Source: Thysanoteuthis rhombus | Taxonomy: Eukaryota; Mollusca; Cephalopoda; Oegopsida; Thysanoteuthidae | Assembly (NCBI GenBank): GCA_963457665.1 | Contig: OY735215.1 | Location: 30,827,318 to 30,891,317, forward strand | Length of the DNA: 64,000 bases | Reading direction: 5' to 3' | Part shown: positions 14,270 to 45,090 of the stretch, piece by piece | Numbering within the stretch: position 1 is the stretch's first letter | How the letters are laid out: every line of letters starts with the position of its first letter | Position numbers and translations under genes: made by a program | Notes under the pieces: generated by a model | Told to the model about the DNA's origin: nothing | What the model saw: the letters and a program-made list of their open reading frames with translations, nothing else | Databases searched by the model: none

Positions 14270-15090
14270 ATGGGCGAGAAGAGAGATTTGAGTGATTTTG
14301 ATAAAGGTCGAATTGCTATGGCCAGGAGGCTAATTCAGAGCATTCAAGAAGCGACACGGCTTGTGGGATGTTTGGCTGTATTGTTTACTTATCAGCCACG
14401 GCCTGAGAATGGAAGAGTCACCAACTGCCGGCAAGACATTGGGTGACCAAGACCTACTGATGAGGGAAGTGAACAGAGTCTTTCCCGCCAAGTACGAACG
14501 AATAGAAGACCTACTGTGGCATGAAGTACAGATAGCCTTAAAATGAAAGAATGCATCACGTTACATCATACCTTTTTTGCGTATGATGCTGTGTAGCCGC
14601 TGACCAGTCAGGATTACCAATTTCATCTGATCCGATTAGTCTCCCTACTCCTGAATACGATAGACAACAAGGTACGTGTGCATGCTCATCCTGGAGAAGT
14701 GATAACACCAGAATGCGACCATCCAGTGGAGGCAGTGGGATGTTTTGAGCAACGTTCTGCAAAGAAACAAGGGATCTATATTTCATGTGGAAGGTACTCT
14801 GTCGTGCATCACCTACCTCAATATCATTGATGACCAGATACACTGCTTCATGGTCACAGTCTCCTACGATGGTAGTATCATCTTTCAGTGGGACAATGTG
14901 CCCTGCTACGTATGGGAATGGTTTCTGGAACATGAAGAAGACTTCAATGTATTGTCCTTGCCACCAAACAGTCCAGATCTCAACCCCGACGAGCACTGTG
15001 ATATGTTGGACCTGCAATTTCGCTGTGCAGAACCTCCACTATGCAACGCACTGCAGTTGAAGGGTCTGCTGTTAACATTCTAGCACCAGG
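14270..15090 (+). pseudogene. Tc1-like (DDE) transposase, decayed
   Basis: The ATG at 14270 opens MGEKRDLSDFDKGRIAMARR, the N-terminal helix-turn-helix start common in Tc1 transposases. After frameshifts come SQDYQFHLIRLVSLLTPEY near 14605-14660 and GTLSCITYLNIIDDQIHCF near 14795-14850. Then FQWDNVPC near 14885 holds the second catalytic Asp, and PPNSPDLNPDEHCDML near 14963-15010 holds the Glu. I count 32 residues between that Asp and Glu, where Tc1 elements have 34, so two codons appear lost. The first catalytic Asp is not identifiable. Inverted terminal repeats were not found. The 153-residue minus-strand ORF over this region is only its antisense shadow. Confidence 0.85.
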
Positions 15091-15414
15091 TCCCGGGAAA
15101 AAAAACTTTAGAGGTCTTGTTGGGTTCATGTCTGATCGGGCAAGAGCTATTTTGCAGGCGCATTGAGGACCAATACTTGATTGAAGGCCGTAATATTTTG
15201 GCTCATCAGTGCATATATTTGAAAGAGAAAAACCCCAGTTGCAAAACACTGATAAGAGAGTTGGTCCCATTAGCATTCGGTGTTGATTTTGGATCCCCAT
15301 ATGGTCTTGCATAAATATGATTTTGTGCCTAAGCTAAGCTTTGTAAATTATCAGTGTTCATATCAATCTACCTCTATTTCTAAAATTGCCTATCTTCTCC
15401 AAATCTATATATAT
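15091..15414. other. Probable 3' part of the Tc1-like element, no separate gene
   Basis: Sequence following the transposase Glu region. The short ORF at 15117-15314 has no recognised motif. Confidence 0.4.
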
Positions 15415-15431
15415 ATAAAATAATAATTGAG

Positions 15432-15483
15432 CCATCCACAGACAGCTGTTTCGTTGTATTACAACTCTTCAGTGTGGCAATGG
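15432..15483 (-). ncRNA. Type I hammerhead ribozyme, copy A (all core bases present)
   Basis: Read 5'-3' on the minus strand from 15483: helix I strand CCACA (15477-15473) precedes CTGAAGA (15472-15466), which is C3 to A9 of the core. Helix II is GTTGT, loop AAT, ACAAC (15465-15453), a perfect 5-bp stem. GAA (15452-15450) is G12 to A14. Helix III is ACAG paired with CTGT (15449-15442) without any loop, then C17 at 15441, so the cleavage site is GUC. TGTGG (15440-15436) closes helix I with CCACA. Beyond an internal loop (TTG opposite A) a further CCA pairs with TGG. The loopless helix III suggests the ribozyme acts as a dimer, as known for other retrozyme and newt-type hammerheads. Cleavage is predicted between 15441 and 15440. 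Confidence 0.85.
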
Positions 15484-15516
15484 ACTTTCTATTATCACAT
15501 CCAGTAACACGAGGTA

Positions 15517-15527
15517 GGATCGAAACC
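15517..15527 (-). promoter_or_regulatory. Pol III B-box-like element in the retrozyme unit
   Basis: On the minus strand GGTTTCGATCC fits the B-box consensus GGTTCRANYCC with one inserted T. An A-box-like stretch, TAGTCTGGTAAAATGCC, lies upstream at 15565-15549. The intervening sequence resembles the anticodon region of a tRNA. Confidence 0.5.
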
Positions 15528-15754
15528 TTCGCTTCAGACCCAGAGACTGGCATTTTACCAGACTACACAGAACTGGACGGTCAGTAAGGCTGAATTTAAG
15601 CGATATATTCACTTACGCACGATTTCACTAGAATGCTTTATTCCAGAGTTAAAAGAGAATTGCTCATAGCTTATAATGAACGAGTTATCTCACTTAAAGA
15701 GTGCTCAACCCTGAATAAGGAAGCGTTAATTATAATAATAATTAAATAATTGAG

Positions 15755-15810
15755 TTATCCACAGACAGCTGTTTCCTTGTATCACTGCTCTTCAGTGTGG
15801 CAATAGACTA
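15755..15810 (-). ncRNA. Hammerhead ribozyme copy B (helix II degraded)
   Basis: The minus strand shows the same order: CCACA (15800-15796), CTGAAGA (15795-15789), a helix II region GCAGT-GAT-ACAAG in which only the distal two pairs form, GAA (15775... side, 15775-15773), ACAGCTGT (15772-15765 approximately), C17 at 15764, and TGTGG (15763-15759) for helix I. All catalytic core bases are still present, but helix II has lost its three proximal pairs relative to copy A, so activity is probably lost. Confidence 0.75.
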
Positions 15811-15835
15811 TCCATCATCCTATCCAAATCGGTAT

Positions 15836-43729: not shown

Positions 43730-45090
43730 GGAAATATTTAGGTACTTCAGAAAACAAAAATGGTATAGTATACCTACGTTGCGTAATCTCTTATTTCGTG
43801 ACTCTCGGATCCATCCATTCTGATTTCAGATTCACAGAACGAAGATTGATAACTGTGGCAAAAACGTGGATCATAAGGAATTTTCTTCTCATTTACCGAA
43901 CCAAGTTCGATAAATGCGAGAACCAATCGCAAGCGTGCCGAGACTGATGAGGTACGTTGGTATAAAGTAATTCTGGCACTCGCGTGCATGGTTTCAGCGT
44001 ACTTTCCTCGAACAGTCATTCTCGTCAACTCATTTTTTTTTCATTCTGTACATTACTGCCGTGACTTCCACGTTTAGTACACATACATCTACTGCTTCAG
44101 GGAAACACGAGAGCAATATATTGTCTCTGAAGACAAGGCTGGGAATTATTCAGGAGCATGTACATGACAAGAGTCGGGCTGAGCTCATGGATAAGTACGG
44201 TCTCGATAAAACGATGATCCACAACATCCCCAAGTCAAACGATAAGATGGGGGAGAACACGAAGAAGCAGGAACCTGGAATTTTCGTATTGAGAATTATT
44301 TCGGGAGTGGGCGTTGACATTTACAGATGCTAAATGGCCACGTCCACACCTGAAATAATTCTTAATAATACCAACATCCAGCAACGTAAGGAACGCAAAA
44401 ATGACAATTTCCCAAATCCCAGCTCTTGGATTCGAAAAAAATGAACAGAGATGCTAAAAAATGTCAAACTTCGGACGAGTTCAATTCTACTAGTACTAAA
44501 ATGGACACACCTCAATTGGTCAGTATACGGTCCTGGTAGGCCCCCATGCTGTGAAAGAGAAGGTTCGGATTTTGCTCGGACGTTCGGACAGAATTTATCA
44601 TCACCAAATCTTTCGGTGGTACTAGCTAACAGCGCAAGCTAGATGAGTGCCAATCCAAGGCTTCAATATTCAGCAGAGAGGCTGACTGCTTGTTTAGGCC
44701 ATGAAAATTTCAAGTGCAGTGATGGCTGTTTGGCGGATGCAAAATGTCAACGAAGCCATAATCAGAGATGCGAATTCTAATGATGGAGCTCTGAATCATT
44801 TCATAGATGGACTGAAACAGCTCGTTGAAGATGAAAAGAGCTCCACTTTTCTCAAATCTACGATGTTGCTTTTGAATTTACCAAACGATAAGGAAAGGTG
44901 GAAAATAGAACGAAGGGTAACCTAATTGTCTTTAGATTTACCGAACGACATGCGTTGCATGCAGCGAACTACTGAACGTCTAATATACCGAATGTGGGGC
45001 AACTCTCTAGTATAACGAACATTCGGCTTTGCGAACATCACCCCCCCCCCCAAATAAGGTCGTAACAGAGAGGTTTTGTTTTAGTTCCTT
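43730..45090 (+). pseudogene. Tigger/pogo-like DNA transposon remnant
   Basis: Near 44095-44215 the plus strand encodes SGKHESNILSLKTRLGIIQ, then KSRAELMDKYGLDKTMIHNI, the CENP-B/pogo-type helix-turn-helix N-terminus (DNA-binding domain) of Tigger transposases. Upstream, TTACCGAACCAAGTTCGATAAAT near 43895-43917 and downstream TAACGAACATTCGGCTTTGCGA near 45015-45036, with AACAGAGAGGTT at 45065-45076, match the usual Tigger non-coding and TIR phrases (AACCTCTCT...). The DDE catalytic domain is missing or unreadable. A rearranged piece of R4-like LINE lies at 44410-44630. Confidence 0.72.
44291..44364. repeat. Short inverted repeat in the Tigger remnant
   Basis: GAGAATTATTTCGGGAGTGG (44291-44310) is inverted at 44344-44364 (CCACACCTGAAATAATTCTTA) with few mismatches. 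Confidence 0.7.

What the first reader, a model, noticed from the sequence alone, without database searches (positions are those of the whole stretch)
15415..15835. Tandem hammerhead-ribozyme repeat (retrozyme or hammerhead SINE)
Two type I hammerheads on the minus strand lie exactly 323 bp apart around a unit with a tRNA-like B box. Seen: both copies have CTGAAGA, GAAA and GUC with matching helix I strands CCACA/TGTGG. Established: such dimeric type I hammerheads define metazoan retrozymes (circular RNA mobilisation), and hammerhead plus Pol III promoter defines schistosome Sm-alpha-type SINEs. Inference: transcription would release a 323-nt RNA ending in a 2',3'-cyclic phosphate at 15441. 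If this combination of B box and dimer is general, it could bridge the two classes.
Basis: partly seen in the sequence, partly recalled or inferred. Interest (0 to 1): 0.9.

Follow-up and report, generated by a model that had tools for sequence, protein, structure and literature searches.

The report
Fossil ribozyme-carrying jumping element in cephalopod
This is one old, partly broken copy of a short jumping RNA element with a self-cutting ribozyme, present thousands of times in what looks like a squid or cuttlefish genome; the kind is known, but the way the copies end hints at how such elements are copied back into DNA.

Summary
Two type I hammerhead sequences lie exactly 323 bp apart on the minus strand. 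Only the 3' one (A, core 15441-15472) is complete; the 5' one (B, core 15764-15795) keeps its core letters but three of five helix II pairs are broken. They belong to a large dispersed family: 3,132 exact places for a 32-place ribozyme pattern and 4,188 for a 20-mer outside it, 0 for reversed controls. A recalled reflectin probe points to a coleoid cephalopod. The element (15406-15822) is a 1.3-unit copy with a (TA)n tail and a possible 8-bp target duplication.

The family is retrozyme-like and carries a degraded tRNA-type A/B-box region. The window copy lost its A box, and a start there could not transcribe both hammerheads. The retrozyme/SINE "bridge" is not new: schistosome Sm-alpha-type repeats already combine tRNA and hammerhead.

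Less expected: 68 of 70 sampled copies end just past the cleavage site, mostly in simple AT repeats. This suggests internal initiation of reverse transcription, as shown for a Penelope-like element. The sample was chosen by an intact hammerhead core and comes from one contig. Circular RNA and activity were not testable.

The parts
15406..15822 (-). Retrozyme-like element, 417 bp, about 1.3 units, 37% GC; boundaries set by the putative target-site duplication
15441..15763 (-). Complete 323-nt unit, from the nucleotide after the B cleavage site to C17 of hammerhead A
   Evidence: positions 1-332 of the family profile, 345.8 bits; the window copy is one of the 40 rows of that profile; 37.8% GC
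15430..15486 (-). Hammerhead A (3' copy), complete: extended helix I (AGUC/GGCU + CCACA/UGUGG), helix II 5 bp, helix III 2 bp with AGCU loop; core 15441-15472, cleavage after 15441
15753..15809 (-). Hammerhead B (5' copy), core letters intact but 3 of 5 helix II pairs and 1 of 4 extension pairs broken; core 15764-15795
   Evidence: (not listed)
15517..15527 (-). B-box-like GGTTTCGATCC (one extra T against GGTTCRANNCC)
15549..15565 (-). Relic of the A box and the stretch after it (TAGTCT...GGTAAAATGCC), with a 3-nt deletion against most other copies
15406..15432 (-). 3' end: AU-rich tract downstream of the cleavage site running into a (TA)n tail; the place where most sampled copies stop
15398..15405 (.). 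Putative target-site duplication, left copy (TCCAAATC on +), flush with the tail
   Evidence: such duplications are not above chance across the family
15823..15830 (.). Putative target-site duplication, right copy (TCCAAATC on +)

Best explanation
The locus is an old, probably inactive genomic copy of a retrozyme-type non-LTR, non-autonomous retroelement. Shown by sequence: the unit carries a type I hammerhead with an extended, internally looped helix I and a short helix III with a palindromic AGCU loop, downstream of a tRNA-type A/B-box region (family level). Shown: copies are dispersed; among those sampled by an intact core nearly all stop within about 35 nt after the cleavage site, mostly in (AT)n, and are usually one truncated unit, sometimes longer (up to 541 nt, about 1.8 units) joined head to tail. 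Inferred: transcripts that span the unit self-cleave, perhaps helped where two hammerheads pair through the palindrome, and are ligated into a roughly 300-330-nt circle. A reverse transcriptase supplied by another element, most likely Penelope-like, starts internally at the AU-rich tract beside the ligated junction on nicked AT-rich DNA. It reads around the template and stops early or after more than one turn, giving the fixed 3' end, the variable 5' end and the occasional dimers. In the window copy hammerhead A could still cleave, B probably cannot, and the A box is gone. The confidence given is for the class (retrozyme-type retroelement); I hold the circular template at about 0.5 and a Penelope-like partner at about 0.35.
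For: Family and ribozyme: 3,132 exact core places against 0 reversed; 83 places for a dimer pattern (3' half of one hammerhead, unit-length gap, 5' half of the next) against 0, of which 79 run on into unit sequence without an (AT)n break by my eye on the 80 letters shown. Fixed 3' end: of 70 loci (the first 70 places, all on contig C1), 68 stop after the last cleavage site (exceptions L070, L116), and a simple repeat begins within 30 nt of it in 61 of 70 (one search gives 63, of which two are L070 and L116). 5' ends spread over the unit; 13 of 70 have two hammerheads, 0 three. Target: (AT)4 or longer within 24 nt of the 5' end in 47 of 110 copies against 1.6% of 24-mers of the window. Promoter relic: A box TRGYNNARNGG exact in 4 and within one mismatch in 12 of the 42 (of 70) pattern-sampled copies that have a B-like word, against 0.12 and 1.96 in shuffles. 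Helix I extension: all four pairs formed in 61 of 162 instances, against a mean of 46 and maximum of 57 in 500 re-dealings. Precedent: internal initiation at AT-rich DNA by a Penelope-like element (PMC11167929, parts 1-2 of 4); circular RNAs from metazoan retrozymes (PMC7229834, parts 1-4 of 6).
Against: No RNA data: transcription, cleavage and circularity are untested. The 3'-end sample is conditioned on an intact core, so elements that end upstream of the hammerhead could not appear in it. [quoted passage not shown] The two units of one element are no more alike than units of different elements (0.867 against 0.864, p 0.12, 29 pairs; 0.870 against 0.862, p 0.13, 8 pairs); shared non-majority letters are 22 of 202 against 6.9% expected (shuffle maximum 10.9%) in set 1 and 29 of 70 against 32% (maximum 48%) in set 2. 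Within the near-window copies the hammerhead is not clearly better conserved than the rest (18 of 258 sliding windows are as conserved), and the core is intact in both copies of only 4 of 30 dimers. Helix I proper shows no pairing excess over re-dealing (93 against 92.8), and the extension is hardly better paired (0.77) than when slid by -3 (0.74). Target-site duplications do not exceed shuffles (8 nt or longer: 3 of 62, the window included, against 1.28). ARAGORN (0 of 50 loci) and Rfam recognise no tRNA. A 5'-end hot spot (13 of 70 within 8 positions, 1.9 expected) is unexplained, and 1 of 70 (L057) begins at the first nucleotide after the cleavage site. No partner element was found; that search did not complete.
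Confidence: 0.72

Rival explanations
1. An ordinary tRNA-derived SINE that happens to carry a hammerhead near its 3' end. Uncleaved linear RNA with an (AU)n tail is the template and circles play no part; longer copies come from read-through of tandem copies.
For: A/B-box relic; fixed 3' end with simple-repeat tail and truncated 5' ends are normal for SINEs (recalled); a 5'-end hot spot (13 of 70) could be an RNA 5' end; hammerhead cleavage was not needed for insertion by a Penelope-like element.
Against: The 5'-end hot spot lies about 100 nt upstream of the A box, not at a type 2 start. 79 of 83 dimer places continue through the cleavage site into unit sequence without an (AT)n break (by eye), which insertion of one tailed copy next to another would not give. 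The B-like word carries an extra T in the aligned set 1 copies and in most of the set 2 copies printed.
Confidence: 0.2
2. Fragment of a Penelope-like element: the repeats would be pseudo-LTR pieces of an autonomous element with minimal hammerheads.
For: Tandem partial units, type I hammerhead, AT-rich target and internal initiation match Penelope-like elements.
Against: In the dimers the unit of about 300-330 nt closes on itself and leaves no room for a reverse transcriptase gene. The hammerhead has an extended helix I with an internal loop, not the minimal form described for such elements (text).
Confidence: 0.04
3. Chance resemblance or an inert satellite repeat with no ribozyme function.
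For: Rfam cut-off not met; hammerhead region not clearly more conserved than its surroundings within the near-window copies.
Against: 3,132 exact core places against 0; all three helices and an outer extension can form; a sister locus passes Rfam at 35.6 bits; the listed places are dispersed, not arrayed.
Confidence: 0.04

Closest known systems
Metazoan non-LTR retrozymes (Cervera and de la Pena 2020, PMC7229834, parts 1-4 of 6)
   Same: Type I hammerhead in a 170-400-nt non-coding unit, low G+C, head-to-tail units, no LTR, thousands of copies.
   Different: Here mostly single truncated units, at most two hammerheads in 70 sampled copies; tRNA-type A/B-box relic; circular RNA not shown.
Schistosome Sm-alpha / Sj-alpha SINE-like elements (PMC2770079, PMC8490949, PMC4918200, passages; Ferbeyre 1998 not held)
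   Same: Hammerhead plus tRNA-derived region in a short unit, very high copy number.
   Different: Elements similar to Sm-alpha keep a tRNA-Gln that tRNAscan-SE recognises; here no tRNA is recognised. No sequence comparison was made.
Axolotl retrozyme hammerheads HHR_Amex1/2 (PMC7229834)
   Same: Helix III of one or two pairs capped by a tetraloop (palindromic in HHR_Amex1); dimers cleave better there.
   Different: Not compared by sequence. The same paper finds efficient monomer cleavage in most invertebrate retrozymes, so a need for dimers here is not established.
Penelope-like element PAc (Poseidon, Anolis; PMC11167929, parts 1-2 of 4)
   Same: Reverse transcription starts internally, downstream of a type I hammerhead, on AT-rich nicked DNA, leaving a short tail.
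   Different: Autonomous and protein-coding; [quoted passage not shown]

Membership tests
Metazoan non-LTR retrozyme | Type I hammerhead with core and three helices | tested here: met
   Copy A and most of 162 family instances pair in helices I and II, with an outer helix I extension; in set 2 the core and part of helix II are fixed by the search pattern. Copy B of the window fails helix II.
Metazoan non-LTR retrozyme | Tertiary contact between loops 1 and 2 | not testable with these tools
   An internal loop in helix I is present; no tertiary modelling was done.
Metazoan non-LTR retrozyme | Unit of 170-400 nt, low G+C | tested here: met
   323 nt, 37.8% GC; family profile 332 positions.
Metazoan non-LTR retrozyme | Occurs as dimers to multimers head to tail | tested here: met
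   83 dimer places genome-wide; 13 of 70 pattern-sampled copies have two hammerheads, none three.
Metazoan non-LTR retrozyme | Target-site duplications longer than 4 bp where present | tested here: inconclusive
   Flush 8-bp repeat in the window, but no family-wide excess; 47 of 110 copies have (AT)n at the 5' junction, which would hide duplications.
[quoted passage not shown]
   No RNA data.
tRNA-derived SINE | Internal Pol III A and B boxes at tRNA spacing | tested here: inconclusive
tRNA-derived SINE | Recognisable tRNA ancestor | tested here: not met
   ARAGORN 0 of 50 loci; no tRNA match by cmscan in 20 loci at E up to 1 and 14 loci at E up to 10.
Penelope-like element | Reverse transcriptase and GIY-YIG open reading frame | tested here: not met
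   The unit of about 300-330 nt closes on itself in dimers without room for one; a genome search for GIY-YIG did not complete.

The most novel reading that the evidence does not exclude
The family shows where an animal retrozyme is reverse-transcribed from: a fixed internal start in an AU-rich tract a few nucleotides past the hammerhead ligation junction, on nicked (AT)n DNA, as in Penelope-like elements. Together with the tRNA-type promoter relic this gives retrozymes both a promoter class and a partner enzyme, two things that a 2020 review (PMC7761336, passages and section 9) said no motif had revealed.
Probability: 0.33. Interest if true: 0.68.

Novelty: new member of a known kind. Interest (0 to 1): 0.47.

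Why it matters
Three full-text searches of the open library gave no paper on hammerhead elements in cephalopods: hammerhead ribozyme with octopus (one paper, both terms only in its reference list), with cephalopod (none) and with squid (two, unrelated by title); subscription journals are mostly not held. The family is large and dispersed, which makes an open question testable from DNA alone. Review PMC7761336 (section 9) states that metazoan retrozymes show no conserved motif pointing to their partner retrotransposon and seem to lack promoters. Here the sampled copies share a stop just past the ribozyme cleavage site, and many share an A/B-box relic.

Tried and rejected
Rfam gathering search: nothing; kept only as a statement about thresholds. 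tRNA detection by ARAGORN and Rfam: no tRNA; the many weak microRNA-family matches there lie, where shown, in (AT)n or similar repeats and were set aside. Self-similarity of the two units of one element as proof of a circular template: too weak. Extra conservation of the hammerhead within the near-window set: not clear. General target-site duplications: not above shuffles. A first hammerhead pairing count used a pattern one base too long, caught 11 spurious instances and was discarded; one search replaces it. A first A-box count with a 12-place pattern (0 exact, 10 of 42 within one mismatch, 3.2 expected) was replaced by the 11-place tRNA A box (recalled) in a narrower stretch; I had read some copies before choosing it, so its excess is partly post hoc. 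The stem-loop at the 5'-end hot spot folds well in some copies and not in others, so no stop mechanism is claimed. Set 1 (L009-L047, 39 loci, plus the window) was picked by similarity to the window and leans to dimers close to it. Set 2 (L050-L119, 70 loci) is conditioned on an exact hammerhead core and lies on one contig. Copy number: 4,188 exact 20-mers at about 8% divergence per site outside CpG would mean of the order of 20,000 units; this is an inference, not a count.

Full report
What was checked. The finding claims two type I hammerheads on the minus strand, 323 bp apart, around a unit with a B box. The repeat is real: 15408-15503 and 15731-15826, spacing 323, 81% identical. Read on the minus strand, both carry CCACA-CTGAAGA-...-GAAAC-AGCT-GTC-TGTGG. 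With relaxed thresholds Rfam gives type I hammerhead for the 3' copy only, 22.7 bits against a cut-off of 34; the gathering search gave nothing. The cut-off is not informative here: L013, L016 and L030 hold the same hammerhead letters and score 25.1 bits. In that call of 20 loci, seven have a type I match at E up to 1, one of them (L049) above the cut-off.

The two window hammerheads differ. Imposing the hammerhead fold, copy A (core 15441-15472) forms helix I (5 pairs), an outer extension AGUC/GGCU beyond an internal loop, helix II (5 pairs) and helix III (2 pairs and an AGCU tetraloop), -7.7 kcal/mol. Copy B (core 15764-15795) breaks 3 of 5 helix II pairs and one extension pair, +0.4 kcal/mol. 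The unconstrained optimum is a different fold in both (-16.4 and -13.1 kcal/mol), so even A must compete with an alternative. The unit RNA folds somewhat better than shuffles (z -2.06).

The family. The window lies in a 2.73-Gb assembly of 514 contigs. A recalled reflectin fragment gives 33 matches, the best 74% over 160 residues, 30 of them on contig C45 and 3 on C10; reflectins are, to my knowledge, confined to cephalopods. A DNA search with the element scored 40 of 8,232 candidates and gave 53 matches at 40 places, the window included. The pattern CTGANGAGTNGTNATACNACGAAACAGCTGTC has 1,556 + 1,576 exact places, its reversed control 0 + 0. A 20-mer outside the hammerhead has 2,027 + 2,161 against 0 + 0. 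A dimer pattern (3' half of one hammerhead, a unit-length gap, 5' half of the next) has 43 + 40 against 0 + 0; it does not require two whole cores. In 79 of the 83 the 80 letters shown pass into unit sequence without an (AT)n break (counted by eye), and no two of the 83 lie one unit apart.

Anatomy from two samples. Set 1: 39 loci (L009-L047) plus the window, chosen by similarity to the window. Set 2: the first 70 places (L050-L119), all on contig C1, conditioned on an exact core but not on length; elements that end upstream of a hammerhead cannot be in it. In set 2, 68 of 70 elements stop after the last cleavage site, typically TGTGGATGACACAATWAT running into (AT)n; L070 and L116 run further. 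A simple repeat begins within 30 nt of the cleavage site in 61 of 70 (one search counts 63, two of which are L070 and L116). The 5' ends vary: 10 of 70 fall in the first ten profile positions, 7 of which start in AT-rich sequence and cannot be placed exactly; one (L057) starts at the first nucleotide after the cleavage site. A sharp cluster of 13 of 70 within eight positions (1.9 expected) has no known cause. Thirteen of 70 carry two hammerheads by the profile (L088 may be a fourteenth), none three; the longest spans 541 nt (L055). (AT)4 or longer lies within 24 nt of the 5' end in 47 of 110 copies of both sets, against 1.6% of 24-mers of the window.

Target-site duplication. The window element is bounded by TCCAAATC at 15398-15405 and 15823-15830, flush with the (TA)n tail and the 5' end. 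Across 62 copies with a tail and without (AT)n at the 5' flank, flush repeats of 8 or more occur in 3, the window included, against 1.28 in shuffles (29 of 200 shuffles reach 3). The duplication is therefore plausible here but unproven as a family trait.

Promoter relic. The unit has GGTTTCGATCC (15517-15527), one T more than the canonical B box; it is the majority form in set 1. In set 2, 42 of 70 copies have the B-like word within two mismatches (21 exact). In set 1, 38 of 40 copies were examined, 34 have the B-like word, and the A box is exact in 1 and within one mismatch in 11 (0.16 and 2.65 expected). The pattern was settled after I had read copies. The window copy lost the A box by a 3-nt deletion. 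No program recognises a tRNA. The A-box relic begins 199 nt downstream of hammerhead B, so a start at this promoter could not include B.

Hammerhead architecture. Over 162 instances (74 in set 1, 88 in set 2), helix I is paired in about 88% and helix II in 94-95% of cells; in set 2 part of helix II is fixed by the search pattern. The outer extension is paired in 81% of cells in set 1 and 73% in set 2 (77% together). The best slid controls reach 51% (helix I), 75% (helix II) and 74% (extension, -3), so the extension rests on little by this measure. Its outermost pair is A-U (AGUC/GACU, 34) in some copies and U-A (UGUC/GACA, 16) in others, but AGUC/GACA, with a mismatch there, is the commonest combination (40 of 162). 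All four pairs form in 61 of 162, above the 57 maximum of 500 re-dealings; helix I shows no such excess (93 against 92.8). Relatedness can inflate the excess.

Age and activity. The two units of one element are 13% apart on average in 29 set 1 elements and 17% in the window. CpG sites diverge 21%, other sites outside the hammerhead 7.6%. Core letters are intact in 14 of 30 (5') and 11 of 30 (3') hammerheads of set 1 dimers, both in 4 of 30. The window copy is thus an old copy among many decayed ones.

Mechanism. A stop at the same place just past the cleavage site, on AT-rich DNA, is what internal initiation of reverse transcription would leave. Frangieh et al. 2024 (PMC11167929, parts 1-2 of 4 read) showed this for a Penelope-like element: initiation downstream of its hammerhead and cleavage preference for AT-rich DNA. 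[quoted passage not shown] the first two points speak for a linear template. If the template is a ligated circle, the start lies beside the ligation point, and more than one turn gives seamless dimers. My test for one template per element was weak: within-element identity 0.867 against 0.864 between elements (p 0.12) in set 1 and 0.870 against 0.862 (p 0.13) in set 2; shared rare letters 22 of 202 against 6.9% (equal to the shuffle maximum) and 29 of 70 against 32% (within the shuffles). An uncleaved linear SINE-like template remains possible. The search for a partner enzyme did not complete.

Relation to the literature. Metazoan retrozymes (PMC7229834, parts 1-4 of 6) share unit size, type I hammerhead and tandem units. 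Review PMC7761336 (passages and section 9) says they show neither promoters nor a motif that reveals the partner, and that they could be regarded as SINEs. The combination with tRNA is known in schistosomes: PMC4918200 (passages), PMC2770079 (passages); PMC8490949 (passages) calls SMalpha SINE-like with a hammerhead. Whether this family is independent of the schistosome one was not tested by sequence. That type 2 promoters have boxes 30-40 bp apart is from the abstract start of PMC7279448 in a search listing.

Verdict. Real, widespread and of a known kind; the window copy itself is a fossil with one complete hammerhead. The shared stop of the sampled copies and the promoter relic are the part worth following.

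Noticed in passing
L049:1440-1544: A diverged sister copy (single hammerhead, B-like GAAAGTTTCAATCC upstream, (AT)n tail) is the only locus that passed E 0.001 and Rfam's type I cut-off (35.6 bits) in the genome search, which scored 73 of 299,496 candidates.
   Followed up: partly
L050-L119 (set 2), profile positions 65-72: 13 of 70 elements begin within eight positions, at about AATGCTCTTCC, some next to non-AT flanks and one in a two-hammerhead copy (L055): a fixed RNA 5' end or reverse-transcription stop about 100 nt upstream of the A box; unexplained.
   Followed up: partly
set 1, 40 full units: CpG positions diverge 21% against 7.6% at other positions outside the hammerhead, which would fit germ-line methylation of these repeats.
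   Followed up: no
window 14706-15083: Fragment of a DDE_3 (Tc1/mariner-like) transposase, E 9.8e-05, below Pfam's cut-off, next to the element.
   Followed up: no
window 43971-44333: Weak CENP-B N-terminal match (E 0.0092, below cut-off), possibly another transposon fragment.
   Followed up: no
window 15651-15654 (minus strand TTTT): The only run of four T in the window unit, a possible Pol III stop inside the unit of this copy.
   Followed up: no
L094, upstream of the element: The 5' flank holds an inverted piece of the same family (reverse complement of the B-box region), i.e. two copies head to head.
   Followed up: no
one search list, C9:3610566 and C15:17677134: Two 'dimer' places have (AT)n between the hammerheads, perhaps independent insertions into one microsatellite.
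   Followed up: no
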